Assembly (NCBI RefSeq): GCF_004365705.1
Contig: NZ_SOBN01000001.1
Coordinates: forward strand, 868,001-932,000
DNA length: 64,000 nucleotides
DNA from: Streptomyces sp. 846.5
GTDB lineage: Bacteria > Actinomycetota > Actinomycetes > Streptomycetales > Streptomycetaceae
Direction: 5' to 3'
Under the pieces are notes generated by a model. The model did no database searches, was not told the origin of the DNA, and was given only the letters and a program-made list of their open reading frames with translations. Below, in pieces: positions 10,770-41,876 of this stretch (position 1 is the first letter of the stretch; every line of letters begins with the position of its first letter). The position numbers were made by a program, and so were the translations under genes.

Positions 10770-13466
10770 TCAGCGCCATACCGCGGGTTCGGTCCGCAGG
10801 GCGGACAGCCGGGCGGCGGCTTCTGCGGCGGCGGGAGAGTTGAGCCGGCGGTAGAGGGCGACGGCGTCCTCCATCCCGGCCAGCGCGGTGGTGCGGTCGC
10901 CGAGGGCGAGGGTGCAGCGGGCCGCCCCTTCCAGGGCGCGCGCCTGGTCCAGTGGGCTGTCGATGTCGCGGGCGAGTGCCAGCGCCTGCTGGTGCAGCTT
11001 CAGAGCCGCGCGTGGGCCGGTCGTCCGCTCGGTCAGGACGGCCAGGTCGAGCAGGGTGCCGGTCTCGCCGAGGCGGCTGCCGGTCTCCCGGTAGAGGGCC
11101 AGCGCCTGCTGGTAGAGCCCGGCGGCTTCGGGGCCCTCGCCCAGCGCTTCGCGGGCCCGGCCCAGGCCGAGCAGTGAGTCGGCCTCGCCGTGGCGGCTGC
11201 CCGCCTCCCGGCAGGCGTCCAGGGAGCGCTGGTGCAGCTCGGCCGCGCCCCGGTGGTCGCCGGCGGCGTGCCGGACCCGGCCCAGGCCGCGCAGGGTGTT
11301 GGCCACGCCCTGGACGCTGTTGAGGTCCTGGTAGATCGTCAGCGCCTCCTGGTAGTACTTCCCGGCGCTGCCCGGGTCGCCCGTCTCGTCGAGGATGAAG
11401 GCCAGGTCGTGCAGGGCCGCAGCCTCGCCCCGGCGGTCGCCCATGGTGCGGTAGAGGTCGAGCACCTGCGAGGACAGCTCGACCGCGGCGGGGGAATCGC
11501 CCGAGGAGTGCCGGGCCCGTCCCAGGTCGCACAGCGCGCGGGCCTCGCCCAGCCGGTCGCCGAGGGCCCGGAAGCCGGCCAGGGCCCGCTCGTGCAGCGC
11601 GGCGGCCTCCCGGATCTCCCCGGTCAGCAACCGGACGCGGCCCAGCTCGTGCAGGTCGTTGGCCTCACCGTGCCGGTCGCCGAGCTCCTGGTGGACGGCC
11701 AGGGCCTGCTCGTACAGCTCCGCAGCAGCCCGGTAGCCGCCGGTCGCGTGCCGGACCCGTCCCAGGTCGCACAGGGCATCCGCCTCGCCGCGGCGGTCGC
11801 CCGCGGCGGCCGCCGCGGCCACGGCGGACTGGTGCAGGACGGCGGCCTGGCTCCAGCGTCCCTCCAGCAGCAGGAAGGCTGCCAGGTCGGCGGAGAGCGA
11901 CACGGTGAACGAGGGAAGGGATGCGACGGCGGGGTGGCCGAGGAGCGCGAGCAGGTTCCGGTGCTCGCTGCGCATCCAGGCCAGGGCCTCGGCCCGGTCG
12001 GACAGAGCGGGGAGGGCGACGGGCGCCGTCGGCCCGGGGCGCCGACCGGGGCGGGTGCGGCGCGCCAGGTGCTCGTTGGCCCGCGCGGCGGCGTGCTGGT
12101 AGTACGCGGCCAGCCGGTGCAGCGGGGCGTCCTGGTCCGCCTCGTCCGTCCGGTGCTCGTCCGTCCGGTCCTCTGCCGTCGACCGGGCGTAGAGCCCGAT
12201 CAGGTCGTGGAACAGGTACCGCCCCGGGGCGCGCTGGACCAGCAGGTTGTGGTCGAGCAGGCTCTCCAGCAGCCGCTCCGCCGTGCGGTGGTCGGTGTCG
12301 GCCAGCGCGGCGACGGCGCAGGTGTCGACGTCGTGGCCGGGGATGCGGGAGAGCAGCCGCAGCAGGTCCTGTTCGGCGGGGGCGAGGGAGGCGAAGGAGG
12401 TGGCGAAGACGGCTGTCAGACTCCGGTCCTCGTCCGTCAGGTGGGTCAGCCGGTGGTGCTCGTCGCGCAGCAGCTCCACCAGGCTCTCCAGGTGCAGGCT
12501 GCGGTGGTGGCGCAGCCGGGCGGCGGCGATGCGGATCGCGAGGGGCAGCCGGCCGCAGAGCTCGACGAGCTCGTCGGCGGCCGGATGGCCGTCAGGGACG
12601 CGGCCGGGGCCCGCGGCTTCGCGCAGCAGCGCCACCGCGTCCGGGCCGGGGAGTAGGTCGACGGCCAGGTTCTGGGCGTCGTCGAGTCCGGTCAGCCGCC
12701 TGCGGCTGGTGATCAGGACCAGGCAGCTGGACGTTCCCGGCAGCAGCGGGCGGACCTGCGCGCTGCTGGCGGCGTTGTCGAGGATGATCAGCGTGCGGGT
12801 GTCGGCGAGCCGTTCCCGGTACAGGGCGGCGCGGGTGCTCAGCTCCTCGGGGATCTGCTGGGGTGACACGCCCAGTGAGCGCAGCAGCCAGTCCAGGGCG
12901 TCGGCGGGGGTGACCGGGGCGACGCCGACGGTGTGGCCGTGGAGGTCCACGAAGAGCTGCCCGTCCGGGAACTGGGGGCGCGCCCGGTGCGCGGCCCGGA
13001 TGGCCAGCGCGGACTTGCCCACTCCGCCCATGCCGTCGATGGCCGAGATCACCACCATGCCGCAGGCGCTGCCCGCCGGCGCCGACCTGGCCAGCGACAG
13101 CAGTTGGTCGAGCTCCCGGGCTCGGCCGGTGAACAGCCTGGTGTCGTAGGGCAGTTGGCAGGGAGCGTCCGGGCGCGGCCGCACCTTGTCGCGGCTGCTG
13201 TCCGGGCGGGCCGGGGCGGAGCGGGTACGCGCCGCCGCGAGCAGCTGCTCGCAGCGGCGTGGATCAAGCGCGAGGGCGTCGGCGAGCCGGGTCACCGACG
13301 AGAGCCGCGGCTGTCGGCGCCCCGCCTCCAGCACGCTGATCGAGTGGGCCGACACCCCTGACCTGTCGGCCAGTTCGTCCTGCGTCCAGCCGGCCGTGAG
13401 CCGACAGTCGCGCAGAAGCTCCCCGAAGGCACTCCCGCCCACTTGTCCCCCTGAACGTTCTGGCAC
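10770..13466 (-). CDS. XRE/NB-ARC/TPR regulator (AfsR-like STAND ATPase)
   Basis: An approximately 898-residue signal-transduction ATPase. An N-terminal XRE helix-turn-helix (ELLRDCRLTAGWTQDELADR, then SGVSAHSISVLEAGRRQPRL) is followed by an NB-ARC module with P-loop GMGGVGKSAL and Walker B-like TLIILDNA. The second half is a long series of TPR-like repeats with a YEQALAVHQELGDRHGEA pattern. STAND proteins of this build switch on ATP binding after a ligand contacts the repeats, and in Streptomyces often control secondary metabolism. The start is uncertain: GTG 13466 (after AGAGGA) or GTG 13442 (after AGGGGG); an ATG at 13529 lacks a ribosome site. Confidence 0.9.
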   Translation of the reverse strand: MPERSGGQVGGSAFGELLRDCRLTAGWTQDELADRSGVSAHSISVLEAGRRQPRLSSVTRLADALALDPRRCEQLLAAARTRSAPARPDSSRDKVRPRPDAPCQLPYDTRLFTGRARELDQLLSLARSAPAGSACGMVVISAIDGMGGVGKSALAIRAAHRARPQFPDGQLFVDLHGHTVGVAPVTPADALDWLLRSLGVSPQQIPEELSTRAALYRERLADTRTLIILDNAASSAQVRPLLPGTSSCLVLITSRRRLTGLDDAQNLAVDLLPGPDAVALLREAAGPGRVPDGHPAADELVELCGRLPLAIRIAAARLRHHRSLHLESLVELLRDEHHRLTHLTDEDRSLTAVFATSFASLAPAEQDLLRLLSRIPGHDVDTCAVAALADTDHRTAERLLESLLDHNLLVQRAPGRYLFHDLIGLYARSTAEDRTDEHRTDEADQDAPLHRLAAYYQHAAARANEHLARRTRPGRRPGPTAPVALPALSDRAEALAWMRSEHRNLLALLGHPAVASLPSFTVSLSADLAAFLLLEGRWSQAAVLHQSAVAAAAAAGDRRGEADALCDLGRVRHATGGYRAAAELYEQALAVHQELGDRHGEANDLHELGRVRLLTGEIREAAALHERALAGFRALGDRLGEARALCDLGRARHSSGDSPAAVELSSQVLDLYRTMGDRRGEAAALHDLAFILDETGDPGSAGKYYQEALTIYQDLNSVQGVANTLRGLGRVRHAAGDHRGAAELHQRSLDACREAGSRHGEADSLLGLGRAREALGEGPEAAGLYQQALALYRETGSRLGETGTLLDLAVLTERTTGPRAALKLHQQALALARDIDSPLDQARALEGAARCTLALGDRTTALAGMEDAVALYRRLNSPAAAEAAARLSALRTEPAVWR

Positions 13467-13564
13467 GAATCCTCTGGACACAGACTCTATGTGCCGCCTG
13501 TGTCGTGCACCATACAAAAGTAAGATCAACGGCCAGGTGTGACGGACGACGCCGCGTGGCGCCG

Positions 13565-14311
13565 CTATCGGGCCCGTGGGCGTCGGGCGGAGGCCGCCAG
13601 CCAGAGGTTCGCGGCCTCAACGCGGCAGTGGACCTGGAGTTTCGCGTAGGCGTGCTCCAGGTGCTTGTCCACAGTGCGGGCGGAGACGTCCAGGCAGTGG
13701 GCGATCTGCTGGTCCGTCATGCCGCGGGCGAGCAGGTCCAGGACCGCGGACTCACGAGCGGTGACCCCGGCGGGTGTCGGCACGCGTGGGGCGAGCCGGT
13801 CCAGCGCGTGGCTCAGCCGGATCCGCAACAGCTCCGAGGCGGCCACGTCGGCCTCGGTGAAGTCGCTGCCGCTGCGGTTCACGACCAGGCAGACGCTGCG
13901 CCGGCCGGTGCGCGCGTACCCGGCCGGGCAGGCCATGGCGAGCTGGTACTCGGCGCCGACCGGCCGCAGCACCTCGGCATAGGTGCCGAGCCGGTGGTAC
14001 TCGGTGCGCGTCTGCAGGTCGGAGCGGCGCAGCGGAACCACGGCGGCGGTGTCGCAGTGACGGAACAGCGGGTCGGCCGGTGCGTGCCGGAAGAAGGTCT
14101 GCACGGCGTCGGGACCGAAGAGGTCGGTCGGGGTGCTGAGCGGCTGACGCCCGGCAGCGGTGCGCAGCGACCAGATCAGGCTGTCCCCCGGGACCGCCTG
14201 GAGCAGCATCGGGAGGAGGGCTGGGAGGAGCGTCTCCTCGTCGACGGCATCAAGCAGGAGGTCGATCACGGCCAGGATGCGCCGTAGTCCGGCTTCCCCG
14301 GACGGAGTCAC
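13565..14311 (-). CDS. LuxR-family transcriptional regulator
   Basis: A 248-residue regulator with a LuxR/GerE helix-turn-helix at its C-terminus. The sequence VTARESAVLDLLARGMTDQQ then IAHCLDVSARTVDKHLEHAYAKL has all conserved positions. The first 170 residues form an unrecognised sensory domain, possibly GAF- or PAS-like. Start is a GTG at 14311 with a weak AAGG site. It lies head-to-tail after the methyltransferase with a 63-base gap and upstream of the NB-ARC regulator on the same strand, but no shared promoter can be shown. Confidence 0.82.
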   Translation of the reverse strand: MTPSGEAGLRRILAVIDLLLDAVDEETLLPALLPMLLQAVPGDSLIWSLRTAAGRQPLSTPTDLFGPDAVQTFFRHAPADPLFRHCDTAAVVPLRRSDLQTRTEYHRLGTYAEVLRPVGAEYQLAMACPAGYARTGRRSVCLVVNRSGSDFTEADVAASELLRIRLSHALDRLAPRVPTPAGVTARESAVLDLLARGMTDQQIAHCLDVSARTVDKHLEHAYAKLQVHCRVEAANLWLAASARRPRAR

Positions 14312-15515: not shown

Positions 15516-16382
15516 TCAGTCCCCGCTGTGGATCACTGCCGTGGCGTGTTCGCGGGCCGGTGCGCCGAGCGCGCGGTTGAGGTCGTCGAAGAGCAGGCCC
15601 GCGGTCTCACCGCTCCAGCCCGGGGGCAGCAGCTGGAGCGGGAGCCCCGGATCGCGGTACGGCAGGCGGCGCCACTGGGTGAGCATCGGGATGTAGGTCG
15701 AGAAGGCCTCGGCCGGGGTCGTGCCGTCCGCGGTCACCCGGTCGAGTACGGGGCGGTACCTGCGGAGGAAGTCCGCGTACAGCCCGGAGAGTTCGTCCAG
15801 GTCCCACCAGGCGCGCACCTTGGAGCGGGGCTCACCGAATCCCGTGTGCTCGCCGTGGAACAGGTCCACATAGCCGGAGAGACCGCGGCGTTCCAGGGTG
15901 CGTCGGGTCTCGGCCGCCAGGTTGCCGGGGGCGATCCACACTCCTGGCGCCGCGGTGCCGAACCCCAGCCGGGTCAGACTGGCACGCAGTTCGTGACGCT
16001 TCTCCCGCTCGGACTCGGGCACGGAGAAGACGACCAGGAGCCAGCCGTCGGCGGTGCTCGCCCGGACCCGTTCAAAGATGCGGGTGTCGCCCTCGGCGAG
16101 CACCTCCAAGGCCGAACTCTCCAGCGAGTAGCCGGCCGCTCGGCCGTGGCGCTCGGGGCACAGCACGCCGCGCCGCTTGAGGCGGGAGATCGAGGAGCGC
16201 ACGGCGGGCTCGTCCAGGCCGAGGTCGGCCATGAGCCGGACCAGGGAGGCCACCGACATCCAGTTGTCCTCGCTGCGCGCGTACAGGCCGAAGACCGTGA
16301 GGATCAGCGGGCCGGGCCGGGTGTCGCGCCCTGCTGTGGCGGGCGGGGTCGGTTCGGTTCGCGTCGTCGGCCCCGTGGTCAT
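15516..16382 (-). CDS. PaaX-family transcriptional repressor
   Basis: A 288-residue PaaX-like regulator. The N-terminal winged helix is LILTVFGLYARSEDNWMSVA followed by VRSSISRLKRRGVL. A central WLLVVFSVPESEREKRHELR block and a GFGTAAPGVWIAP segment are characteristic of the family. PaaX represses phenylacetate genes and releases DNA when it binds an aryl-CoA, so a PaaX relative beside an aryl-CoA ligase suggests induction by the CoA thioester made here. It is the last gene of the leftward unit RidA-FAH-PaaX, 10 bases after the FAH gene. ATG 16382 gives the family length. Confidence 0.9.
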   Translation of the reverse strand: MTTGPTTRTEPTPPATAGRDTRPGPLILTVFGLYARSEDNWMSVASLVRLMADLGLDEPAVRSSISRLKRRGVLCPERHGRAAGYSLESSALEVLAEGDTRIFERVRASTADGWLLVVFSVPESEREKRHELRASLTRLGFGTAAPGVWIAPGNLAAETRRTLERRGLSGYVDLFHGEHTGFGEPRSKVRAWWDLDELSGLYADFLRRYRPVLDRVTADGTTPAEAFSTYIPMLTQWRRLPYRDPGLPLQLLPPGWSGETAGLLFDDLNRALGAPAREHATAVIHSGD

Positions 16383-16392
16383 GGCTCCCACC

Positions 16393-17283
16393 CTAATGGG
16401 CGCTGGTCGGGCGCTTGAGGTGCGCCTGGGTGATGCGATTGCGCAGCCGGCCGATCCCCTCGATCCGCGCCTCGACGGTCGATCCGCCGACCAGGTGCCG
16501 CGGGGGTGTGCGGGCGTGGCCGACGCCGCCCGGAGTGCCGGTGGCGATGATGTCGCCGGGGTTGAGCCGCACGACCGTGGAGACGTACTCGACCAGGGCG
16601 ACCGGGTCGAACAGCAGGTCGGCCGTGGAGTCGTCCTGCATGACCTCGCCGTCCACCTCCAGCCGGATGCCGAGGGCGGGACGGACCCCGCCGGGCAGTT
16701 CGTCCGGGGTGACCAGCCAAGGGCCCACCGGGGTGCAGGAGTCCCAGGCCTTTCCCTGGAGCCACTGTCCGGTGCGGTACTGCCAGTCCCGGGCGGTGAC
16801 GTCGTTGAGCACGGTGAAGCCCGCGATGGCCTGCTCGGCCTGGGTACCGACGGCCCTTCTGACGGGTTTTCCGATGACCAGGGCGAGTTCGGCCTCCCAG
16901 TCGAACGCGTGGCTCTCCTCCGGCTTGACGATCTCGTCCTCGGCGCCGGCCAGGCTGTCGGCGAACTTCGCGAAGAGCGTCGGGTACTGAGGCAGCTCGC
17001 GGCCCATCTCCAGGATATGGCTGCGGTAGTTGAGCCCGACGCAGACGATCTTCGACGGGCGGGGCACCAGCGGCGCGAACTCGGCCCCGGCCGCCGGGTA
17101 GGACGGTGTCGCCGGGTCGGTGCCCGCCCGGACCGCCTCGGCGCGGGTGCGCCAGTCGGGACGGGCGAGGAACGCGCCGAGGTCGGCGTCGCCGAGGTCG
17201 ACGAACCGGTCCCCGTCGAGTCGGACCGCCCGGGTCGCCGGCTCGCCGTCGGCGGTGGGGACACGGAGGGTGGCAAACTTCAC
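16393..17283 (-). CDS. fumarylacetoacetate-hydrolase-family protein
   Basis: A 296-residue FAH-superfamily enzyme. These metal-dependent proteins cleave or decarboxylate 2,4-dioxo acids and include fumarylpyruvate and maleylpyruvate hydrolases. Visible core motifs are VCVGLNYRSHILEMG, the metal-site DWEAELALVIGKP, NDVTARDWQ, and GDIIATGTPGGVG. The GTG at 17283 has AAGGAG six bases upstream and is clearly better than upstream in-frame codons. Placement between RidA and PaaX suggests it acts on the ring-opened, deaminated product of the aryl-CoA route. Hydratase or decarboxylase activity cannot be excluded. Confidence 0.9.
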   Translation of the reverse strand: MKFATLRVPTADGEPATRAVRLDGDRFVDLGDADLGAFLARPDWRTRAEAVRAGTDPATPSYPAAGAEFAPLVPRPSKIVCVGLNYRSHILEMGRELPQYPTLFAKFADSLAGAEDEIVKPEESHAFDWEAELALVIGKPVRRAVGTQAEQAIAGFTVLNDVTARDWQYRTGQWLQGKAWDSCTPVGPWLVTPDELPGGVRPALGIRLEVDGEVMQDDSTADLLFDPVALVEYVSTVVRLNPGDIIATGTPGGVGHARTPPRHLVGGSTVEARIEGIGRLRNRITQAHLKRPTSAH

Positions 17284-17339
17284 GGTCGGCTCCTTGGGCA
17301 GGCAGGACTGCGCCGTTCGGGTGGTTTTTCGGACGGGCG

Positions 17340-17780
17340 TCAGACTGACGCGATACTCTGCTCCGTGCTCGGAGCGCGCAGCCGGTGCTCGGGGATCACC
17401 GCCACGCCGAGGATCTCGATCATCGCCTCCGGCTGCCACAGCGCGGTGCAGCCGATGCCCGCCATCGCCGGGTAGACCGTCCCGGCCAGCTCCCGCCAGA
17501 CCCGGCCGATCTCCTTGCCGTGGGCCTGGTAGTCGGGGATGTCGGTGAGGTAGATCGTGACGCTGACCAGGTCCTGCGGCTCGCCGCCGGCCTCGCGCAG
17601 GGTGGCGAGCACATTGCCGAAGGCCTGCCGGAACTGCTCGACGATGCCGCCGGGCACGATCCGCATCCCGGCGTCGAGGGCGGTCTGCCCGCCCAGGTAG
17701 AGGGTGTTGCCGGCCAGCGTCCCGTGGGAGTAGCCGCTGGGGGCCGGGAGGGTGGGCGGGTTCACGGCGAGGGGCGGCAT
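17340..17780 (-). CDS. RidA/YjgF-family enamine/imine deaminase
   Basis: A 146-residue RidA-like protein. It shows SGYSHGTLAGNTLYLGGQTA, GGIVEQFRQAFGNVLATL, DLVSVTIYLTDI and a YPAMAGIGCTALWQPEAMIE C-terminal stretch. RidA members hydrolyse enamines or imines to ketones and ammonia; the family includes 2-aminomuconate deaminases of aminophenol and anthranilate-type pathways. The classical catalytic Arg of housekeeping RidA is not obvious (GIGCTALWQPE), so a pathway-specific deaminase is likelier. It is the first gene of the leftward unit, with GGAGG before ATG 17780, divergent from the cupin gene. Confidence 0.88.
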   Translation of the reverse strand: MPPLAVNPPTLPAPSGYSHGTLAGNTLYLGGQTALDAGMRIVPGGIVEQFRQAFGNVLATLREAGGEPQDLVSVTIYLTDIPDYQAHGKEIGRVWRELAGTVYPAMAGIGCTALWQPEAMIEILGVAVIPEHRLRAPSTEQSIASV

Positions 17781-17895
17781 GGGGCCTCCGTCCGGTCGAG
17801 TGTGCGCTGGATCCTCCGGCGCCTGGTATTGACTTTATCCGACGGTGATGAAAAATACGAGATACAGTGCAGCCTCACGAACGGAGCGGTCTCCG
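17781..17895. promoter_or_regulatory. divergent promoter region between RidA and cupin genes
   Basis: This 115-base gap must drive both arms of the aryl-CoA locus. A TTGACT hexamer (17829-17834) is followed after 17-18 bases by an unusually A-rich stretch (17851-17858), a fair promoter for the cupin operon. The imperfect inverted sequence TTATC-N7-GATGA (17835-17851) overlaps it and could be the PaaX-like operator; I could not match it to the E. coli PaaX consensus. Confidence 0.4.
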
Positions 17896-18378
17896 ATGGA
17901 GCCTGATCTCAGCAAGTACCGCCTGGAGGGTGACAACTCGATGTACCGGCTGCCGAACGGCCTGGTCGCTCCGGTGGTCACCCGGGTCGGGTCCGAGCAC
18001 GGGGACACCGCGGACTCGGGCGGCGCGGTGCGCGTGTCGGGCGTGAGCATCCAGCACACCCCGGCCCGCCGGCTCTGGTTCGGCAAGGTGCGCAACGAGC
18101 CCGGCTACCGCTCCGTCTCGCACCACCACGGCGAGGCCGAGACCGGCGGGTATGTGCTCTCCGGCCGGGCGCGCATCTACTTCGGCGAGAAGTTCGAGGA
18201 CTACACCGACATGGAGGAGGGCGACTGGGTCTTCGTGCCGCCCTTCATGCCGCATGTCGAGTGCAACCTCTCGCGCACCAGGCCGCTGGTGTGGATGACC
18301 ACCCGCACCCCCGAGAACATCGTGGTCAACCTCCCCGACGTCGACGACGCCGAACTGCGCGACTGGCTGAGCCGATGA
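17896..18378 (+). CDS. single-domain cupin, possible ring-cleaving dioxygenase
   Basis: A 160-residue cupin. Motif 1 is SHHHGEAETGGYVLSG (His76, His77, His78, Glu82), and motif 2 is GDWVFVPPFMPHVECN with His120 and the conserved Asn124, so a 3-His/1-Glu metal site is likely. Short cupins can be dioxygenases or regulators. The length does not fit classical gentisate 1,2-dioxygenase (about 350 residues, two cupin folds) or typical 3-hydroxyanthranilate dioxygenase motifs. It is the first gene of the rightward operon, and its stop overlaps the next ATG. GGAG lies nine bases before ATG 17896. Dioxygenase function is inferred from context only. Confidence 0.85.
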   Translation: MEPDLSKYRLEGDNSMYRLPNGLVAPVVTRVGSEHGDTADSGGAVRVSGVSIQHTPARRLWFGKVRNEPGYRSVSHHHGEAETGGYVLSGRARIYFGEKFEDYTDMEEGDWVFVPPFMPHVECNLSRTRPLVWMTTRTPENIVVNLPDVDDAELRDWLSR

Positions 18379-19289
18379 CCGCCGCGACGCCGCCGACCTC
18401 CGAGATCGCCACCGCGGCGCTCACGCTCACCCCCGTACCGCCCGAGCACTTCGACCAGGCGTTCACCGCGGTGACCCAGCCGTGCCCGTGGCCCAAGGCC
18501 TACGGCGGAGATCTGGTCGCCCAGGCCGCGGCAGCGGCAATGCGCTCGGTCGACGACGCCAAGACCCTGCATTCCATGCACAGTTACTTCCTGCGCCCGG
18601 CCGAGATCGGGGCCGAGGTCCGGTACGAGGTCGAGGTACTGCGCGACGGCCGCGGCTACAGCACCCGGCAGGTCCGCGGATTCCAGAACAGCAAGGCGCT
18701 CTACGTCTGCATGGCCAACTTCGCCGCGGGCGAGGCCGGAGCGAGTTTCGCCGCCGAACTCACCGAGGTGGTGCCCGGACCCGAGGACCTGCCCAGCTCC
18801 GCCGGGTACCTCGCGAAACGCGAGGGCGGCTCGATGACGGCGCTGTCGAAGGCCTACTGGTCGGGCGGCCGCGGCTTCGACATGCGGCATGTGCCCGGCC
18901 CGGTCTACCTCGCGGTGGAGGGCGAGAAGGGCCAGAAGGCGCCGCAGCAGGCGGTGTGGGTCAAACCCTTCGACCCGCTGCGCCCGGTCGCCGGGCTCAG
19001 CGACGCGCAGCGCGACCTCGCCGCGCTCGCCTACGTCTGCGACTACACCATCCTCGAACCCGTGCTCCGGGTGCTCGACCTGCCGTGGGCCACCCCCGGC
19101 CTGGTCACCGCCAGCCTCGACCACTCCATGTGGTTCCACCGGCCCGCGGAGACCGACGGCTGGCTGCTCTACACGCAGGAGGCCGTCAGTGCCGAGGCCG
19201 GGCGCGGTCTGGGCGTCGGGCGGTTCTTCACACCGGACCGGCGCCATCTGGCCACCGTCGCCCAGGAGGGCATGATCCGCCCCGCCTGA
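18375..19289 (+). CDS. acyl-CoA thioesterase, TesB type
   Basis: A 304-residue double-hotdog thioesterase of the TesB family. It starts with PWPKAYGGDLVAQAAAAAMR and contains LHSMHSYFLRPA, and carries the second-half signature LVTASLDHSMWFHRP with the catalytic Asp, then DGWLLYTQEA. TesB enzymes hydrolyse acyl- and aryl-CoA to free acids. Its ATG overlaps the cupin stop (ATGA), so translation is coupled. In this cluster it could release the hydroxylated aryl acid from CoA before ring opening, or rescue CoA from dead-end thioesters. Confidence 0.92.
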   Translation: MTAATPPTSEIATAALTLTPVPPEHFDQAFTAVTQPCPWPKAYGGDLVAQAAAAAMRSVDDAKTLHSMHSYFLRPAEIGAEVRYEVEVLRDGRGYSTRQVRGFQNSKALYVCMANFAAGEAGASFAAELTEVVPGPEDLPSSAGYLAKREGGSMTALSKAYWSGGRGFDMRHVPGPVYLAVEGEKGQKAPQQAVWVKPFDPLRPVAGLSDAQRDLAALAYVCDYTILEPVLRVLDLPWATPGLVTASLDHSMWFHRPAETDGWLLYTQEAVSAEAGRGLGVGRFFTPDRRHLATVAQEGMIRPA

Positions 19290-19332
19290 CGCCCGGCCGC
19301 TCCGACGCGTTCACGGAAGGACCCGCATCCCG

Positions 19333-20991
19333 ATGTCACTCTCACCCTCGGCACACGTGGACACGTTCACCCGCGACCATCTGCCGCCCGCGCATCTGTG
19401 GCCCACCCTTGAGTTCACCACGCCGGAGCTGCACTATCCGGACCGGCTCAACGCCGGCACCGCACTGATCGACGTTCCCATCGAACTCCACGGCGCCGAC
19501 CGCCCGGCGCTGCGCACCCCGGCCGGGGAGCAGTGGACCTACGGACAGCTGCGCCTGCGCGCCAACCAGGTCGCGCAGGTGCTGACGGAGGATCTGGGCC
19601 TGGTGCCCGGACAGCGGGTGCTGCTGCGTTCGCCCAACAACCCCTGGACCGTCGCCGCCTGGCTCGGCGTGCTGAAGGCGGGGGGCGTCGTGGTGACCAC
19701 CATGGCCGCCCTGCGCCCGCGAGAACTCGCGCCGATCGTCGAACGCACCCGGCCCTCGGTCGCCCTCGTCGACCACCGGTTCGCCGAGGACGTGCACGCC
19801 GTTCGCGACTCGACGCTGCCCCCGCTGCACGTCGTGGAGTTCGGCGGCACCGGGCCCGCGGACCTCGTCGCCCGCGCCGCCGCCAAGTCCGGTGTGTTCG
19901 CCGACGTCCCGACCGCCGCCGACGACGTGGCCCTGCTCGGGCCGACGTCCGGCAGCACCGGGGTCCCCAAGATCACCATGCACTTCCACCGCGACCTGCT
20001 GTCGATCGACAACACCTTCGGCCGCCACACGCTCGCGCTGCGGCCCGACGACGTGGTCGCCTGTTCCGCGCCGCTGGCCTTCACCTTCGGCCTCGGCATG
20101 CTTGTCGTCTTCCCGCTGCGGGCCGGCGCCTGCGCGCTGCTCACCGAGAGCGCCACCCCGGATCAGCTCGCCCGGACCGTCGCGCGCGAAGGCGTGACGG
20201 TGCTGGCCACAGCCCCGACCGCGTACCGCGCGATCGTGCGCGCCGGCAGCGAGCGCGCGCTGGCCGGGCTGCGGACCGCCGTCTCCGCGGGCGAGCACAT
20301 CACCGAGTCCGTCTGGCGCCGGCTGCGCGACGAGCTGGGCCTGCCGGTCATCGACGGCATCGGCGCCACGGAGCTGCTGCACATCTTCATCTCCGCCGCC
20401 GGGGACGAGATCCGGCCCGGCGCGACCGGAAAGCCGCTGCCCGGCTACCGGGCCGCCATCCTCGGCCCCGACGGCGAGGAGCTCGGTCCCGGCGAACCCG
20501 GGCGCCTCGGGGTGATCGGCCCGGTCGGCTGCCGCTACCTCGACGACGAGCGCCAGAAGGACTACGTCGTCAACGGCTGGAACGTCACCGGCGACGTCTT
20601 CCGGCGGGACGAGGACGGCTACTTCCACTACCTCGCCCGCAGCGACGACATGATCGTCTCCTCCGGGTACAACATCGGCGGCCCCGAGGTCGAGGCGGCC
20701 ATCGAGACCCACCCCGACGTCCTGGAATGCGCCGTCGTTCCGCGTCCCGACGCCGAGCGCGGCTCGGTGGTGTGCGCCTTCGTCGTGCTGCGCCCGGGAG
20801 TCGAGGGCGGCGCGGCCAAGGCGCGGGAGATCCAGGACCACGTCAAGCAGGTGCTGGCGCCCTACAAGTACCCGCGCGACCTCAGATTCTGCGCGAGCCT
20901 GCCGCGCAACGCGAGCGGGAAGCTGCAGCGTTTCGCGCTCCGCAGGATCGTCGAGGACGAGCAGGCCGGCGCGGCTGCCGCCGGGCACTGA
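19333..20991 (+). CDS. benzoate/2-aminobenzoate-CoA ligase-like AMP-forming enzyme
   Basis: A 552-residue acyl-adenylate synthetase. The P-loop GPTSGSTGVPK is near residue 208. The A5 motif GIGATELLHIFISA (near 343) is the form seen in benzoate-type ligases. The TGDVF hinge region follows, and PRNASGKLQR near 524 carries the catalytic Lys. Benzoate and 2-aminobenzoate ligases share this subgroup, so the acid activated is an aromatic carboxylate. The fused monooxygenase downstream favours anthranilate, or salicylate. ATG 19333 lies 43 bases after the thioesterase, preceded by GAAGGA. Confidence 0.9.
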   Translation: MSLSPSAHVDTFTRDHLPPAHLWPTLEFTTPELHYPDRLNAGTALIDVPIELHGADRPALRTPAGEQWTYGQLRLRANQVAQVLTEDLGLVPGQRVLLRSPNNPWTVAAWLGVLKAGGVVVTTMAALRPRELAPIVERTRPSVALVDHRFAEDVHAVRDSTLPPLHVVEFGGTGPADLVARAAAKSGVFADVPTAADDVALLGPTSGSTGVPKITMHFHRDLLSIDNTFGRHTLALRPDDVVACSAPLAFTFGLGMLVVFPLRAGACALLTESATPDQLARTVAREGVTVLATAPTAYRAIVRAGSERALAGLRTAVSAGEHITESVWRRLRDELGLPVIDGIGATELLHIFISAAGDEIRPGATGKPLPGYRAAILGPDGEELGPGEPGRLGVIGPVGCRYLDDERQKDYVVNGWNVTGDVFRRDEDGYFHYLARSDDMIVSSGYNIGGPEVEAAIETHPDVLECAVVPRPDAERGSVVCAFVVLRPGVEGGAAKAREIQDHVKQVLAPYKYPRDLRFCASLPRNASGKLQRFALRRIVEDEQAGAAAAGH

Positions 20992-21017
20992 GCCGCCGAG
21001 CACTGAGAGGAACCACC

Positions 21018-23405
21018 GTGAAGATCGCGATCATCGGCGGAGGCCCCGGCGGCCTCTACCTCGCCTCACTGATGAAACAGCTCGACCCGGCCCATGAGAT
21101 CACCGTGTGGGAGCGCAACGCTCCTGACGACACCTTCGGCTTTGGCGTGGTCTTCTCCGACGAGACCCTCGGCGGCATCGAGAACGCCGACACCGCGTTC
21201 GCCGAGGCCATGGCCCAACGCTTCGCCCGGTGGACCGACATCGACATCCACTACCGGGGTGAGCGCCACACGGTGGGCGGGCAGGGCTTCGCCGCCCTGG
21301 GCCGCAAGGACCTGCTGCACCTGCTCCAGGCGCGCTGTCGTACACGTGGGGTCACCCTGAACTTCTCGACGCCCGCGCCGGATCTCGAGGAGCTGCGCGC
21401 CTCGCACGACCTCGTGGTGGCGGCCGACGGTGTCAACTCCCGGGCCCGGGCGGCACACGCCGAGGTGTTCCGTCCGACACTGGACCGGCGGCGCAACAAG
21501 TACATGTGGCTCGGCACGGACCGGGTCTTCGAGGCGTTCCAGTTCTTCGTCAAGCAGACGCCGTGGGGAACCATGCAGGTGCACGGCTACCCGTACTCGG
21601 AGCAGGGCTCGACGTTCATCGTCGAGATGCACGAGGACGTCTGGCGCGCCGCGGGATTCGACGCCACGGCCGAGGCGCAGCTGCCGCCGGGCGTCTCGGA
21701 CGAGTACGCGGTCTCCCGGCTGCGCGAGCTGTTCGCCGAGGAACTGGCCGGGCACGAGCTGTACGCCAACAACTCCAAGTGGCTCGACTTCACCACCGTG
21801 CGCAACGAACGCTGGCACGACGGCAATCTGGTGCTGCTCGGCGACGCGGCGCACACCGCGCACTTCTCCATCGGCTCGGGCACCAAACTGGCCATGGAGG
21901 ACGCCCTCGCCCTCGCGGCCTGCCTGCACGAACACGCAGGGATCGACGCCGCGTTGAGCGCGTACGAGACCGAGCGGCGGCCGGTCGTGGAGTCCACCCA
22001 GCGTGCGGCCCAGGCCTCGCTGGAGTGGTTCGAGAACATCGGCATGTACGTCGGCCAGGAGCCGACGCGGTTCTGCTTCAATCTGCTCACGCGCTCGCGC
22101 CGGATCACCTACGCCAACCTGCGCACCCGGGACCGTGAGTTCGCCGACCGGGTGGACGCCGCGTTCGCCGCCGAGCAGGGCCTGGAGAGCGTGGCGCCGG
22201 CGATGTTCCAGCCGTTCCGGCTCGGGGCGCTGGAGTTGAAGAACCGGGTCGTCGTCTCCCCCATGGACATGTACAGCGCCGTCGACGGCCTGCCCGGCGA
22301 TTTCCATCTCGTCCATCTCGGTTCCAAGGCGATGGGTGGGGCCGGGCTGGTGATGACCGAGATGGTGTGCGTATCGCCGCAGGCGCGGATCACCCCGGGC
22401 TGCACCGGGCTGTGGACCGACGCCCAGGGCGAGGCCTGGAGCAGGATCGTCTCCTTCGTCCACGACCGCAGCACCGCGCGGATCGGGCTCCAGCTCGGCC
22501 ACTCCGGCCGCAAGGGCTCGACCCGGCTGATGTGGGAGGGCATGGACGAGCCGCTGGCGGAGGGCAACTGGCCCCTGGTGGGCCCCTCGGCGGTGCCGTA
22601 CGGGCCGGGGACGCAGACGCCTCGGGAGGCCACCCGCGCGGACCTGGACCAGGTCGTCGCCGACTTCGTCGCTGCGGCCCGCCGGGGCGCGCAGGCCGGA
22701 TTCGACCTGCTGGAACTGCACTGCGCGCACGGCTACCTGCTCTCCTCGTTCCTCTCGCCGCTCGCGAACCACCGCACCGACGCATACGGCGGCTCGTTGG
22801 AGAACCGGCTGCGCTTCCCGCTGGAGGTCTTCGACGCGGTGCGCGCGGTCTGGCCGGCCGACCGGCCGGTGATCGTGCGCATCTCCGCCACCGACTGGGC
22901 GCCGGACGGCAACACCGAGCACGACGCCGTCGAGATCGCCCGCGCCTTCATCGCGCACGGCGCGGACGGGATCGACGTCTCCTCGGGCCAGGTCGCCCGG
23001 CACGAGCGGCCCGCGTTCGGCCGCTCCTACCAGACGCCGTTCGCCGACCGCATCCGGCACGAGGTCGCCGCGGCCACCGGCACGGCCGTCATCGCGGTGG
23101 GGGCGATCGCGTCCTACGACGACGTCAACTCGATCCTGCTGGCCGGTCGCGCCGACCTGTGCGCACTGGGCCGCACCCACCTCTACGACCCGCAGTGGAC
23201 CCTGCACGCGGCGGCCGAGCTGGACTACCGGGGTGCCGCAGCGACCTGGCCGCTGCCCTACGAGGCCGGACGGCGCAGACCGCCGACCGCCCGCACCGAT
23301 GCGGTCCGCCCCCGCCTGGCACTGCTGCGCGACGACACCCAGGACCCGCAGCAGGCCCTCCATCTGCGCTGGACGCCGTCCCAGGCACCGGTCCATGTCG
23401 CCTGA
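21018..23405 (+). CDS. fused aryl-CoA 5-monooxygenase / old-yellow-enzyme (2-aminobenzoyl-CoA or salicylyl-CoA type)
   Basis: A 795-residue flavoprotein fusion. The first 390 residues are a salicylate-hydroxylase-like FAD monooxygenase: GGGPGGLYLA at the start and GDAAHTAHFSIGSGTKLAME near 275. From about residue 395 an old-yellow-enzyme barrel begins (FRLGALELKNRVVVSPM) with HCAHGYLLSSFLSPLANHRT near 567 and a GGSLENRLRF FMN/substrate loop. This is the domain order of 2-aminobenzoyl-CoA monooxygenase/reductase, which hydroxylates C5 and reduces the ring; salicylyl-CoA 5-hydroxylases are relatives. GTG 21018 has AGAGGA in place; a much longer upstream frame only overlaps the ligase gene out of phase. 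Confidence 0.92.
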   Translation: MKIAIIGGGPGGLYLASLMKQLDPAHEITVWERNAPDDTFGFGVVFSDETLGGIENADTAFAEAMAQRFARWTDIDIHYRGERHTVGGQGFAALGRKDLLHLLQARCRTRGVTLNFSTPAPDLEELRASHDLVVAADGVNSRARAAHAEVFRPTLDRRRNKYMWLGTDRVFEAFQFFVKQTPWGTMQVHGYPYSEQGSTFIVEMHEDVWRAAGFDATAEAQLPPGVSDEYAVSRLRELFAEELAGHELYANNSKWLDFTTVRNERWHDGNLVLLGDAAHTAHFSIGSGTKLAMEDALALAACLHEHAGIDAALSAYETERRPVVESTQRAAQASLEWFENIGMYVGQEPTRFCFNLLTRSRRITYANLRTRDREFADRVDAAFAAEQGLESVAPAMFQPFRLGALELKNRVVVSPMDMYSAVDGLPGDFHLVHLGSKAMGGAGLVMTEMVCVSPQARITPGCTGLWTDAQGEAWSRIVSFVHDRSTARIGLQLGHSGRKGSTRLMWEGMDEPLAEGNWPLVGPSAVPYGPGTQTPREATRADLDQVVADFVAAARRGAQAGFDLLELHCAHGYLLSSFLSPLANHRTDAYGGSLENRLRFPLEVFDAVRAVWPADRPVIVRISATDWAPDGNTEHDAVEIARAFIAHGADGIDVSSGQVARHERPAFGRSYQTPFADRIRHEVAAATGTAVIAVGAIASYDDVNSILLAGRADLCALGRTHLYDPQWTLHAAAELDYRGAAATWPLPYEAGRRRPPTARTDAVRPRLALLRDDTQDPQQALHLRWTPSQAPVHVA

Positions 23406-24024: not shown

Positions 24025-24388
24025 GGTCTGCATTCTCCTCGTACGGTGATGTAAGCATTGTATACATCGAGAGCGGGGCGACCGGGACTTCGCGGTCGAC
24101 CAGGGGGGCGTACTGCTGGCCGCCGTAGCTGTCGGAGTCGTGGATGTCGCCCTGGCGCACGGGGCGCGGCAGGGAGACCTTGACGGCCTGGGCGCGGTCG
24201 TGATGGACCACCAGGACCCGGTCGGGGTCGGCTCCGTAGAGGTCGGCGAAGAGCTGCGGGGTGAGCAGTCCGGAGTCCCGCAGGGTCCGGTAGCTGTGCT
24301 CGTCGCGGCACATGAAGTCGAAGGTCAGGACGAAGGGCCCGGCGTTCTTGGAGCGGATCAGGGAGCACAGGTCGAGCAGGGTGGTCAC
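23987..24388 (-). CDS. DUF4387 family protein
   Basis: A 133-residue small protein whose first 105 residues match the DUF4387 pattern: LLDLCSLIRSKNAGPFVLTF, FMCRDEHSYRTLRDSGLL, then LFADLYGADPDRVLVVHHDR and GDIHDSDSYGGQQYAPLVD. DUF4387 genes almost always follow an AtuA/DUF1446 gene, as here; its GTG start overlaps the AtuA stop by four bases (24385-24388). Function is unknown; AtuA-type proteins were first linked to acyclic terpene use in Pseudomonas. The last 25-30 residues are read through the operator and start region of the TetR gene and look like an unnatural extension. Confidence 0.87.
   Translation of the reverse strand: MTTLLDLCSLIRSKNAGPFVLTFDFMCRDEHSYRTLRDSGLLTPQLFADLYGADPDRVLVVHHDRAQAVKVSLPRPVRQGDIHDSDSYGGQQYAPLVDREVPVAPLSMYTMLTSPYEENADRVDSGEVPLPPR
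24031..24069. promoter_or_regulatory. TetR operator/promoter element, copy 1
   Basis: The core is a perfect inverted repeat GATGTA-N9-TACATC (24048-24068). The whole 39 bases match, with about six differences, the reverse complement of 46037-46075. It lies directly upstream of the TetR gene, with a TATACA-like -10 inside, so it probably serves for autoregulation. Confidence 0.65.
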
Positions 24389-25755
24389 GGCATCACCTCG
24401 TGGTGGACGGTCCGGAACATCTCGTAGGGGGTGCTGGGTACGACCACGTGGTTGAGGGTGAACCGGTAGACCGGGCCGCGGTCGGTCTCGGGGGGCGAGA
24501 AGGGGAAGGCGACGGTGCTGGCCAGCCCTTCGTACTGGGGTATCGGCAGGTGCGAGCTGGAGTGGGCGACGAAGGTCGCCACCGCGCGGGCGAGGGCCTG
24601 GGTGGGGGCGGTGATCGTGATCAGGACGCCGAGTTCGTGGGCGGTCCGGTCGCGGGCCGGGTCCAGCGGGCCGAGGACGGCGTGCTGCCCGTAGAGGCGG
24701 TAGTCGATGTCGATGTCGTCGGGGTCGACCCGGCCGTCGAAGATGTCGCTGATCTTGGCGCGGAAGTACCTCTGGGCCATGGGCAGGAGCGTAGGGAGCT
24801 GTTCGATGACGACGCGGTCGCGGATCCCGCCGACCGCGATGGTCTGGTACCCGACGAGCCGGGAGCCCTCGAGTTTGATCGTGTAGGTGTCGCTGGGACG
24901 GTAACGGGCTCCGGCGACCCGTACCCGTCGTTCGTCCAGGGCGGTGTAGCTGGCGTCGGTGGTGTCCAGGATGCCGGAGGGTTCGGTGATCAGATAGGGG
25001 TTGGCGTTCTCGTACAGGGTGTGGGCGGCCACCGAGAGCGGGGTCAGCCGGGCGGCGGGGTCCAGGGGCTCGACGTCGAAGCAGTCCTCGCGCAGGTGGA
25101 CGAAGAGACCGTCGGCGCTGGGCGGGATCGCGCACGCGGCCCCGCACTCGATGGTCTTGGCCGCGTGCCAGGTCAGTCCCGGGTCGGCGCCCATGACGTG
25201 CGGCAGTGCGGCGAACAGGGCGGTGTCGCTGGCACGGCCGGCCAGGACCACCTCGGCGCCTTCGCGCAGGGCCTGCTGGATGGGTTCGACGCCCATCATG
25301 CCCACGACGTGACTGTCGGTCAGAGTGTCGCGGTCGATCGGGGGCGCCGGGTCCAGCGGACGGATGCGGCCCTGCTCGTAGCGCTTGGTGAGGTAGGCGG
25401 GGTCCTGGTCGGCGTAGATGAGGGCGAGCCTGAACGACAGGCCCTCCTGCGCCGCGATGTCACGGGCGATCCCGGCGACCAGGTCGACGCCGGCGTCGCG
25501 GCCGCTGGTGCCGCAGGAGCCGATGATCAGCGGCACACCCAGGGTGTCGCGGGCCTTGAGGAGCAGGCGGAGGTCGCGGGTCACGGCTTCGCGGGACAGC
25601 TTGGGTACACCGCTGCCCAGGTGGTAGGGGCCGCTGTCGGTGGAGCCGGCGTCGCAGGCGATCACGTGCGGGAGCATGGCCACTCCACGCTCCAGGGACT
25701 CGCGGCGGAAGCCCGCGCCCAGGGCGCCGGTGGGGGCCAGGATCCTGATCTCCAA
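24385..25755 (-). CDS. AtuA-like acyclic terpene utilisation protein (DUF1446)
   Basis: A 456-residue protein of the DUF1446/AtuA family. The recognisable series is ILAPTGALGAGF, VIACDAGSTDSGPYHLGSG, PLIIGSCGTSGRDAG, SHVVGMMGVEPIQQAL, VVLAGRASDTALFAALP and KTIECGAACAIPP. The biochemical activity is not established; Pseudomonas AtuA is needed for citronellol/geraniol growth, but family members occur in many catabolic loci. The TTG at 25755 with GGAAGAG upstream fits the family start; an ATG 18 codons earlier would swallow the GntR operator at 25777. It is translationally coupled to DUF4387. The neighbouring ABC transporter suggests a small imported substrate. Confidence 0.87.
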   Translation of the reverse strand: MEIRILAPTGALGAGFRRESLERGVAMLPHVIACDAGSTDSGPYHLGSGVPKLSREAVTRDLRLLLKARDTLGVPLIIGSCGTSGRDAGVDLVAGIARDIAAQEGLSFRLALIYADQDPAYLTKRYEQGRIRPLDPAPPIDRDTLTDSHVVGMMGVEPIQQALREGAEVVLAGRASDTALFAALPHVMGADPGLTWHAAKTIECGAACAIPPSADGLFVHLREDCFDVEPLDPAARLTPLSVAAHTLYENANPYLITEPSGILDTTDASYTALDERRVRVAGARYRPSDTYTIKLEGSRLVGYQTIAVGGIRDRVVIEQLPTLLPMAQRYFRAKISDIFDGRVDPDDIDIDYRLYGQHAVLGPLDPARDRTAHELGVLITITAPTQALARAVATFVAHSSSHLPIPQYEGLASTVAFPFSPPETDRGPVYRFTLNHVVVPSTPYEMFRTVHHEVMP

Positions 25756-25776
25756 GGGTCTCTTCCATTCAGTAAA

Positions 25777-25790
25777 TTTGCTATAGCAAC
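25777..25790. promoter_or_regulatory. GntR operator candidate upstream of the AtuA gene
   Basis: TTTGCTATAGCAAC, containing the perfect 12-base palindrome TTGCTATAGCAA, lies 22 bases before the TTG start of the AtuA-like gene. The same core occurs at 26560, 30616 and 30672. Confidence 0.7.
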
Positions 25791-25832
25791 GTGGTGGCGA
25801 GTGGATCACTCACTGTCCGGTGCGGGTGACTT

Positions 25833-39945: not shown

Positions 39946-40228
39946 GGGATGCCTTCCTGTGGGGGCGGAACCGATCCCTGGTTCAAGGATGTGAATCCAT
40001 GTCATTGACATGAACCTGTGAGGATAGGTCAGGAAGATAGGTCTGAACCAATCCACCGTCAAGCCCCGCCCGACCAGTCGTCAACTGGTCGTGGGGGTCT
40101 GCGCATCCAGGGCGTGATCGTCTATTCCAAGACAGGAATACTCCTATTGCGGCATGGACGCGCCCACGCCTGCCCCGTAGCGTCATCCGTGAGGCTGGGA
40201 AGTCCCCGGCTCCGCAAAGGGGTTGACC

Positions 40229-40441
40229 ATGGCAGAGAAGACCGGCCTTACTCGGCTTACGACCCGCCCCGGCGGCCCGAACTGCGATGACGACGACTGC
40301 CCGAACGTGTACCGCACCGAGTCTGGGACGTTCGTAGTCCAGGGCGCGACCTTCGGCGGTTTCCAACCGCCGGACGGCGAAGGATTGGTGGAAATTCCCG
40401 AACACATTTTGAGGGAGGCTGTCCGTGCTCTTGGATGGTGA
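40229..40441 (+). CDS. small protein of the DUF6879/XRE trio
   Basis: A 70-residue acidic protein. The motif GGPNCDDDDCPNVYRTESGT and the end VEIPEHILREAVRAL are features I recognise from small proteins that precede DUF6879 genes in Streptomyces. The function is unknown. AAAGGGG precedes ATG 40229. It overlaps the DUF6879 gene by 17 bases, so translation is coupled. Confidence 0.8.
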   Translation: MAEKTGLTRLTTRPGGPNCDDDDCPNVYRTESGTFVVQGATFGGFQPPDGEGLVEIPEHILREAVRALGW

Positions 40442-41779: not shown

Positions 41780-41876
41780 TCTTTTATGCGGCTACAGGAA
41801 TTATTCTTCCCTCTGTCTGACTGTGCTTCTAGCCTTGGGAAATCCAAGGAAGCACACTCTTACGGGGAGCAGCATC

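What the first reader, a model, noticed from the sequence alone, without database searches (positions are those of the whole stretch)
15516..23405. Compact CoA-dependent aryl-acid pathway, plausibly anthranilate via 5-hydroxyanthranilate
Seven adjacent genes supply every step of a possible new route. The ligase makes the aryl-CoA, and the fused monooxygenase/OYE hydroxylates C5. TesB releases the free acid, a 160-residue cupin could open the ring, RidA would hydrolyse the enamine, and the FAH protein would cleave the dioxo acid; PaaX would sense the aryl-CoA. Known 2-aminobenzoyl-CoA routes continue by beta-oxidation, but no beta-oxidation gene is present. The salicylyl-CoA route of Streptomyces needs gentisate dioxygenase, and the cupin here is far too short for that family. 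RidA is hard to explain unless the substrate carries nitrogen.
Basis: partly seen in the sequence, partly recalled or inferred. Interest (0 to 1): 0.82.

Follow-up and report, generated by a model that had tools for sequence, protein, structure and literature searches.

The report
Anthranilate breakdown through a reduced ring
A conserved set of seven soil-bacterium genes most likely breaks down anthranilate by attaching it to coenzyme A, destroying its aromatic character and then cutting the ring with a small metal-binding protein, which could supply the missing end of a pathway whose late steps are still unknown.

Summary
The seven genes are real (15516-23405) and travel together. Of the 80 loci kept from a cupin-based genome scan, 80 hold ligase, monooxygenase/OYE, RidA and TesB, 69 PaaX and 47 FAH; none matched the enoyl-CoA hydratase or gentisate dioxygenase probe. 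The same genes lie on plasmid pAL1 of Arthrobacter Rue61a, whose ligase was shown to make anthraniloyl-CoA (PMC3534580); the window's is 64% identical. Anthranilate is well supported; free 5-hydroxyanthranilate is not. The OYE active-site residues H/H/Y are kept in 89 of 89 distinct cupin-linked enzymes and in 0 of 27 gentisate-dioxygenase-linked ones. My reading: the fused enzyme makes non-aromatic 2-amino-5-oxocyclohexene-carboxyl-CoA, the RidA-like protein deaminates it, the cupin opens the dione ring, TesB removes CoA, FAH splits the chain. Steps after the fused enzyme are inferred. The RidA-like protein lacks the arginine needed by known imine deaminases, and the cupin has no close solved relative.

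The parts
15516..16382 (-). PaaX-family transcriptional regulator (288 aa), likely aryl-CoA-responsive repressor
   Evidence: Pfam PaaX, PaaX_M, PaaX_C; TIGR02277 168.5 bits, under its cut-off of 264.55; PaaX in 69 of 80 loci
16393..17283 (-). FAH-family C-C hydrolase (296 aa), proposed acylpyruvase
   Evidence: Pfam FAA_hydrolase 2.4e-67; NYxxHxxE motif; 57% identical to the FAH of a gentisate-type cluster, L055; FAH in 47 of 80 loci
17340..17780 (-). RidA-family protein (146 aa), Met in place of the canonical catalytic Arg; proposed enamine hydrolase
   Evidence: Pfam Ribonuc_L-PSP; YPAMAGIG against YPARAAIG of 3r0p and 3k0t; in 80 of 80 loci
17827..17860 (.). conserved 34-bp element TATTGAC...AATACGA between the divergent RidA and cupin genes, probable promoter/operator
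   Evidence: pattern upstream of the cupin in 47 of 80 loci, 0 in one shuffle of each; single copy in the window; not found in the matching stretch of L100 (pAL1), L103, L195, L039, L040. The pattern was derived from these same 80 loci
17896..18378 (+). single-domain cupin (160 aa), proposed dione-cleaving dioxygenase
   Evidence: Pfam Cupin_2 2.9e-8; H76, H77, H78, E80, E82, H120 invariant in 13 aligned sequences
18375..19289 (+). TesB-type acyl-CoA thioesterase (304 aa), start overlapping the cupin stop
   Evidence: Pfam Acyl_CoA_thio, 4HBT_3, 4HBT_3C; CDYT, SLDH and QEG in 12 of 12 aligned; 80 of 80 loci
19333..20991 (+). aryl-CoA ligase (552 aa), probable anthranilate-CoA ligase
   Evidence: Pfam AMP-binding; best solved relatives benzoate-CoA and anthranilate-CoA ligases; 64% to the pAL1 ligase, which was shown to act on anthranilate
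21018..23405 (+). fused FAD monooxygenase and OYE reductase (795 aa), 2-aminobenzoyl-CoA monooxygenase/reductase type
   Evidence: NF006101 1228 bits against a cut-off of 1078; Pfam FAD_binding_3 and Oxidored_FMN; 72% to pAL1
22719..22736 (+). OYE active-site motif HCAHGY (H568, H571, Y573 of the fused protein)

Best explanation
The cluster degrades anthranilate (2-aminobenzoate) by a CoA route in which the ring is made non-aromatic before it is opened, with no beta-oxidation. (1) The ligase makes anthraniloyl-CoA [strongly supported by a tested homologue]. [quoted passage not shown] active site intact here]. (3) The RidA-family protein hydrolyses the enamine to 2,5-dioxocyclohexanecarboxyl-CoA, which fits the C7H8O4 acid seen as a CoA ester in Rue61a [inferred]. 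(4) The small metal-binding cupin cleaves this cyclic beta-dicarbonyl between C1 and C2 with O2, as Dke1 does with beta-diketones, giving 2,4-dioxopimeloyl-CoA [inferred]. (5) TesB frees the acid, succinylpyruvate [inferred; it may act earlier]. (6) FAH, as an acylpyruvase, gives succinate and pyruvate [inferred]. PaaX represses the divergent operons until aryl-CoA accumulates [inferred]. My odds: steps 1-2 about 0.85, step 3 about 0.6, step 4 about 0.45, step 6 about 0.55.
For: Same seven genes on pAL1, with ligase activity on anthranilate and CoA esters of C7H7NO3 and C7H8O4 acids only in anthranilate-grown cells (PMC3534580). Identity to pAL1: MO 72%, RidA 71%, cupin 65%, ligase 64%, TesB 59%. 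80 of 80 loci kept have MO, ligase, RidA and TesB; enoyl-CoA hydratase and gentisate dioxygenase probes 0 of 80. OYE H/H/Y in 89 of 89 cupin-linked MOs against 0 of 27 gentisate-linked; 18 of 21 with beta-oxidation genes keep it. TesB in 10 of 10 cupin-plus loci and in 0 of the 29 cupin-minus MO loci. Anthranilate-forming neighbours: tryptophan dioxygenase and kynureninase homologues, cyclase-family and indole-type genes; both tryptophan genes in the host genome. Four cupin relatives without MO lie near OYE reductase, FAH or SDR genes. Dke1 accepts 2-acetylcyclohexanone and ethylacetoacetate (PMC7226712).
Against: No sequence link between this cupin and Dke1 or any characterised C-C dioxygenase; only weak cupin hits. 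The cupin models are poor (pLDDT 56.6 and 39.1); the better one lists salicylate and gentisate dioxygenases among weak hits, which leans to the rival. The RidA-like protein lacks the Arg essential in RidA. FAH is missing from 33 of 80 loci, though 52-53% homologues lie elsewhere in three genomes whose cluster lacks it. The window FAH is 57% to a gentisate-cluster FAH and 46% to pAL1's. Tryptophan dioxygenase is within reach in only 1 of 80 loci, kynureninase in 0. 5-Hydroxyanthranilate is converted cometabolically by Rue61a, and the known enzyme makes 5-hydroxyanthraniloyl-CoA when NADH is short. Free 2,5-dioxocyclohexanecarboxylate should decarboxylate, so the order of cupin and thioesterase matters and is unknown.
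Confidence: 0.45

Rival explanations
1. One reading: the fused enzyme only hydroxylates, TesB frees 5-hydroxyanthranilate, the cupin cleaves its aromatic ring, RidA hydrolyses the enamine and FAH cleaves the dioxo acid.
For: Monocupin ring-cleaving dioxygenases exist (PMC10306065); weak fold hits to salicylate/gentisate dioxygenases from a low-confidence model; FAH resembles that of a gentisate-type cluster; a hydroxyanthraniloyl-CoA-type ester was seen in Rue61a, the known enzyme forms 5-hydroxyanthraniloyl-CoA when NADH is short, and Rue61a converts 5-hydroxyanthranilate cometabolically; a thioesterase is present in 80 of 80 loci.
Against: OYE residues kept in 89 of 89 cupin-linked MOs but in 0 of 27 gentisate-linked; Rue61a does not grow on 5-hydroxyanthranilate; the cupin has no detectable relation to the gentisate dioxygenase of L097 (hhalign probability 1.7%); C1-C2 cleavage of 5-hydroxyanthranilate would give an amide, not an enamine (chemical reasoning).
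Confidence: 0.15
2. Reduced ring, but hydrolytic opening: FAH (or the thioesterase) opens the cyclic dione without oxygen, and the cupin is an enamine hydrolase, isomerase or decarboxylase.
For: FAH enzymes cleave C-C bonds beside carbonyls; the cupin's weak relatives in the PDB include isomerases and oxalate decarboxylase; the RidA lacks its catalytic Arg, so another protein may deaminate.
Against: FAH is absent from 33 of 80 loci, so it is the least constant of the enzymes (the cupin itself was the search query, so its presence there proves nothing).
Confidence: 0.25
3. Salicylate route: salicylyl-CoA is hydroxylated to gentisyl-CoA and degraded as gentisate.
For: NCBIfam name 'bifunctional salicylyl-CoA 5-hydroxylase/oxidoreductase', above cut-off.
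Against: Gentisate dioxygenase probe 0 of 80 loci, RidA 80 of 80; pAL1 ligase acts on anthranilate and Rue61a does not grow on salicylate or gentisate; gentisate-linked MOs form a separate set with a changed OYE site.
Confidence: 0.05

Closest known systems
Anthranilate lower-pathway genes of plasmid pAL1, Arthrobacter sp. Rue61a (PMC3534580, passages seen; NC_009453.1)
   Same: Same seven genes: RidA, FAH, cupin, TesB, ligase, MO/OYE and PaaX, 46-72% identical; ligase tested on anthranilate
   Different: FAH is in the cupin operon there; in the window it lies with RidA and PaaX. In the passages seen only ligase, MO and the PaaX-type regulators were given roles; I could not read the 2007 pAL1 paper.
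Aerobic 2-aminobenzoyl-CoA pathway of Azoarcus evansii (through PMC4539516, passages seen)
   Same: Ligase plus fused monooxygenase/reductase; RidA also recurs in the beta-oxidation-type clusters found here
   Different: The known route is said to continue by beta-oxidation; the window type lacks it and has cupin, TesB and FAH instead
Gentisate-type clusters of Streptomycetaceae (L097, L098 and relatives), like the salicylyl-CoA route (recalled)
   Same: Ligase, MO, FAH, PaaX
   Different: Gentisate-dioxygenase-like bicupin (under its NCBIfam cut-off), nitrilase-family hydrolase, OYE site Q/H/H; no RidA in the two 20-kb loci
Dke1, acetylacetone-cleaving cupin dioxygenase (PMC7226712, passage seen)
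   Same: Cupin; beta-dicarbonyl substrates, including one on a cyclohexanone ring; its small size is recalled
   Different: No sequence match found; analogy only

Membership tests
Aerobic 2-aminobenzoyl-CoA pathway | Aryl-CoA ligase acting on anthranilate | tested here: inconclusive
   64% identity over 552 columns to a ligase shown to act on anthranilate; substrate itself not testable here
Aerobic 2-aminobenzoyl-CoA pathway | Fused FAD monooxygenase/OYE with intact reductase site | tested here: met
   NF006101 above cut-off; H568, H571, Y573 kept; that these residues matter is recalled from OYE enzymes
Aerobic 2-aminobenzoyl-CoA pathway | Beta-oxidation enzymes follow | tested here: not met
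   In the linked genes: enoyl-CoA hydratase 0 of 80, acyl-CoA dehydrogenase 1 of 80 loci; hence called a variant. Unlinked beta-oxidation genes of the genome were not examined
Salicylyl-CoA/gentisate route | Gentisate 1,2-dioxygenase in the cluster | tested here: not met
   0 of 80 loci; cupin unrelated by hhalign; the rest of the host genome was not searched for one
RidA imine deaminase (RidA, Rid1-3) | Conserved catalytic arginine | tested here: not met
   Met in the window and in 88 of 89 cupin-linked RidA, the last unresolved; role of Arg from PMC4433059
Cupin metal enzymes | Metal-ligand His/His/Glu/His pattern of the two cupin motifs | tested here: met
   H76, H77, H78, E80, E82, H120 invariant in 13 of 13; motif definition seen in PMC10306065
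Ring-cleaving cupin dioxygenases (gentisate, salicylate, hydroxyanthranilate) | Sequence or fold kinship to a characterised member | tested here: inconclusive
   None by sequence; weak fold hits from a pLDDT 56.6 model
TesB thioesterases | Catalytic Asp/Thr(Ser)/Gln | tested here: met
   D of CDYT, S of SLDH and Q of QEG in 12 of 12 aligned; the identity of the triad is recalled; TIGR00189 166.5 bits, under its cut-off of 292.85
Phenylacetate PaaX equivalog | TIGR02277 score over cut-off | tested here: not met
   168.5 against 264.55 bits

The most novel reading that the evidence does not exclude
A ring-opening strategy for aromatic acids not described in the papers found: oxygenase plus OYE first turn the arene into an alicyclic enaminone, an Arg-less RidA makes the dione, and a new family of small cupin dioxygenases cuts this non-aromatic ring oxidatively, so that anthranilate ends directly as succinate and pyruvate. 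The cupin-FAH pair would be a portable module, also used with separate OYE reductases on other cyclic diones.
Probability: 0.35. Interest if true: 0.75.

Novelty: new variant of a known kind. Interest (0 to 1): 0.55.

Why it matters
The late steps of the aerobic anthraniloyl-CoA pathway are an admitted gap: a catabolism survey left out tryptophan degradation through this enzyme 'due to a lack of knowledge' (PMC9007349, passage). The gene set is conserved in many actinomycetes, with related sets in alphaproteobacteria, in some cases beside tryptophan or indole catabolism genes. It names candidate proteins for those steps and one sharp test. It would also give a biochemical role to an Arg-less RidA group and to an uncharacterised cupin family. 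It shows that the label 'salicylyl-CoA 5-hydroxylase/oxidoreductase' covers at least two kinds of cluster, since enzymes of the cupin and the gentisate kind both pass its cut-off; the beta-oxidation kind was not scored.

Tried and rejected
Tried, little gained:
- Two AlphaFold jobs on the cupin (and 81/86), both of low confidence.
- Profile search of the PDB for the cupin: weak cupins only.
- Paper searches (open-access text only; listed of found: 25 of 78, 30 of 65, 30 of 31, 1 of 1, 15 of 39, 11 of 11). In the listings and the passages I opened, none gives the cupin, TesB, RidA and FAH a role in anthranilate breakdown. I read passages, no whole paper.
- Distant cupin relatives (37-42%) lie in unrelated contexts.

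Considered and rejected:
- Salicylate as substrate.
- The size argument against ring cleavage.
- The 177-aa cupin start: it lies inside the conserved upstream element, and most close relatives start at MEPD.

Limits of the counts:
- The 80 loci are the best of 391 and 76-92% identical to the window cupin; 12 of them are not over 20 kb. Neighbours were sought with one probe per gene (two for acyl-CoA dehydrogenase; tblastn E <= 1e-8, 35% coverage), so distant forms can be missed.
- The 27 gentisate-linked MOs come largely from one search seeded with such an MO in one family, and most of the 89 cupin-linked from the cupin scan, so they are not independent events.
- Most loci reach only 1.5 kb to each side, so missing RidA there says nothing.
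- From one search's table, MOs under 80% query coverage were dropped, as were duplicates by sequence. Besides the groups named, 22 had no informative neighbour in reach (14 H/H/Y, 8 other) and one (L200, Q/H/H) had a racemase-like neighbour but no gentisate dioxygenase in reach.
- Of the plasmid cupin hits (161 records) 30 rows were listed, and I opened the neighbourhoods of 12 of them (one search had no annotation), plus pAL1 by accession.
Full report
What is there. The window lies in a 9.03-Mb genome. One member of its family, G478, has a contig of the same length as Streptomyces sp. LUP47B, so I take the host for an actinomycete of the Streptomyces family. Between 15516 and 23405 seven genes form two divergent groups: cupin, TesB, ligase and fused MO/OYE on the + strand, and RidA, FAH and PaaX on the - strand. 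Families were assigned with Pfam and NCBIfam. The cupin stop and TesB start overlap. A 34-bp element (17827-17860) between the divergent RidA and cupin genes recurs upstream of the cupin in 47 of 80 related loci and in 0 shuffled controls. It was not found in five more distant clusters checked, pAL1 among them. I derived the pattern from the same 80 loci, so the count describes conservation and is not an independent test.

Is it a unit? Yes. The cupin profile was scanned over one genome per species; 391 relatives were confirmed and the best 80 kept. All 80 hold MO, ligase, RidA and TesB within the 10-kb flanks; 69 hold PaaX and 47 FAH. The probes for enoyl-CoA hydratase and gentisate dioxygenase matched in 0 of 80, those for acyl-CoA dehydrogenase in one, and that for tryptophan dioxygenase in one. 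In an even draw of 394 genomes of the class, 11 have a strong cupin (E < 1e-40) and 66 an MO at E <= 1e-150. Ten of the 11 carry both side by side; the eleventh, G612, has the cupin without an MO in the 15 kb fetched. The nine MOs of 71% identity or more, plus one of 68%, are the ones with such a cupin; the other 56 genomes with an MO have none of that strength (one, G648, has a 43% cupin far from its MO). So the cupin marks one clade of MO clusters.

Three kinds of MO cluster. In the 40 loci compared, enoyl-CoA hydratase occurs in 17 of 30 cupin-minus loci and in 0 of 10 cupin-plus loci; one cupin-plus locus, L081, has an acyl-CoA dehydrogenase at its edge. TesB was found in 10 of 10 cupin-plus loci and in none of the 29 cupin-minus loci with an MO. 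RidA is shared by the cupin kind and the beta-oxidation kind. A third kind (L097, L098 and relatives) has a gentisate-dioxygenase-like bicupin (under the NCBIfam cut-off), FAH, PaaX and a nitrilase-family hydrolase; the two 20-kb loci show no RidA. In L055, which also holds a gentisate-dioxygenase-like gene, the MO lacks the OYE half.

The deciding comparison. I read the residues aligned with H568, H571 and Y573 of the OYE half in 160 distinct fused MOs. Beside a cupin, 89 of 89 are H/H/Y. With enoyl-CoA hydratase or acyl-CoA dehydrogenase, 18 of 21 are H/H/Y. Beside a gentisate dioxygenase, 0 of 27 are: 26 are Q/H/H and one Q/H/Q. Of 22 with no informative neighbour in reach, 14 are H/H/Y and 8 are not, so the site also varies outside the gentisate kind; the last one (L200) is Q/H/H. 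That these positions are catalytic in OYE enzymes is recalled, not shown here. Where the next enzyme needs an aromatic hydroxy acid, the reductase is lost or altered; in the window's kind it is kept. This argues that the window's fused enzyme gives the non-aromatic 2-amino-5-oxocyclohexene-carboxyl-CoA, as described for the Azoarcus enzyme (through PMC4539516), and against a free aromatic 5-hydroxyanthranilate. The sets share ancestry, so the numbers are not independent events.

Substrate. Plasmid pAL1 of Arthrobacter sp. Rue61a carries the same seven genes: MO 72%, RidA 71%, cupin 65%, ligase 64%, TesB 59%, PaaX 48-49%, FAH 46% identical. In PMC3534580 (passages) the pAL1 ligase made anthraniloyl-CoA. 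CoA esters of C7H7NO3 and C7H8O4 acids appeared only in anthranilate-grown cells. The strain did not grow on salicylate, gentisate or 5-hydroxyanthranilate, though it converted the last cometabolically. It has a second, chromosomal ligase (also tested) and a candidate second MO, so the metabolites cannot be pinned to pAL1. In Rhodococcus qingshengii the cluster includes tryptophan 2,3-dioxygenase and kynureninase homologues (both just under NCBIfam cut-offs). In Alloyangia a related set lies beside a cyclase-family gene and indole-type genes. The host genome has tryptophan dioxygenase and kynureninase genes next to each other elsewhere. Anthranilate is therefore the likely substrate; the window's own ligase is untested.

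What the other proteins do is inference. The C7H8O4 acid fits the deaminated ring dione, so an enamine hydrolase is needed, and the RidA-like protein is the candidate. Against it stands Met in place of the arginine on which known imine hydrolysis depends (PMC4433059, passages), in 88 of 89 cupin-linked copies (one unresolved) and in 8 of 9 from the beta-oxidation kind. The same replacement in both kinds suggests a shared special role. The cupin keeps the metal-ligand positions but has no close solved relative. Dke1, a cupin that cleaves beta-dicarbonyls and accepts 2-acetylcyclohexanone (PMC7226712, passage), is the nearest chemical analogue I know. Four relatives of the cupin without the MO sit near OYE reductase, FAH or SDR genes, which fits cyclic dione chemistry better than arene chemistry. 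FAH would then split a 2,4-dioxo acid. The window's FAH is 57% identical to one from a gentisate-type cluster, no further than it is from the FAHs of other cupin clusters (matched stretches 44-59%). FAH is missing from 33 of 80 loci, although 52-53% homologues lie elsewhere in three genomes whose cluster lacks it.

Against my reading: the fold search with a low-confidence cupin model lists salicylate and gentisate dioxygenases among its weak hits, a monocupin ring-cleaving dioxygenase is known (PMC10306065, passages), and the known monooxygenase/reductase does release 5-hydroxyanthraniloyl-CoA when NADH is short (as cited in PMC3534580).

Novelty. Ligase and MO of pAL1 have been discussed as an anthranilate-CoA pathway, and the Azoarcus route is classical. 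In the listings and passages that my searches gave, the other genes have no role. PMC9007349 (passage) lists the pathway among those omitted for lack of knowledge. Two key older papers are not held, so earlier proposals may exist. I file it as a new variant of a known kind.

Noticed in passing
L097 8592-15907 and L196-L222: Streptomycetaceae clusters with an MO whose OYE site is Q/H/H (Q/H/Q in L208), a gentisate-dioxygenase-like bicupin that also matches 5-aminosalicylate dioxygenase, and a nitrilase-family hydrolase (L097 and L098 also FAH and an Asp/Glu-racemase-like protein). Since cleavage of 5-hydroxyanthranilate between C1 and C2 would give an amide, these, rather than the window, may be a true 5-hydroxyanthranilate route.
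   Followed up: partly
L102, L104, L105, L106: Cupins 47-67% identical to the window's lie near FAH, SDR or free-standing OYE reductase genes without the fused MO: a possible dione-cleaving module.
   Followed up: partly
L101, L191, L192: Alphaproteobacterial versions: MO, RidA, cupin, FAH, two SDRs and hotdog/thioesterase-family proteins in place of TesB; L192 beside cyclase-family, indolepyruvate oxidoreductase and indole/styrene monooxygenase genes.
   Followed up: partly
L087 1302-1676: A 56% cupin in genome G612 with no MO in the 15 kb fetched, the one exception among 11 strong cupins.
   Followed up: no
window 40000-42200: Local G+C drop (52-64% against about 71%) around a helix-turn-helix protein (40946-41779, by eye) and a small neighbouring ORF (40425-40949).
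   Followed up: no
window 10770-13529: 919-aa protein with N-terminal helix-turn-helix, ATPase-like and tetratricopeptide-like repeat sequence (by eye), next to a LuxR-type regulator at 13565-14311 (by eye).
   Followed up: no
window 24385-25809: AtuA-family protein (Pfam PF07287) with a GntR/FCD regulator upstream, just beyond the cluster.
   Followed up: no
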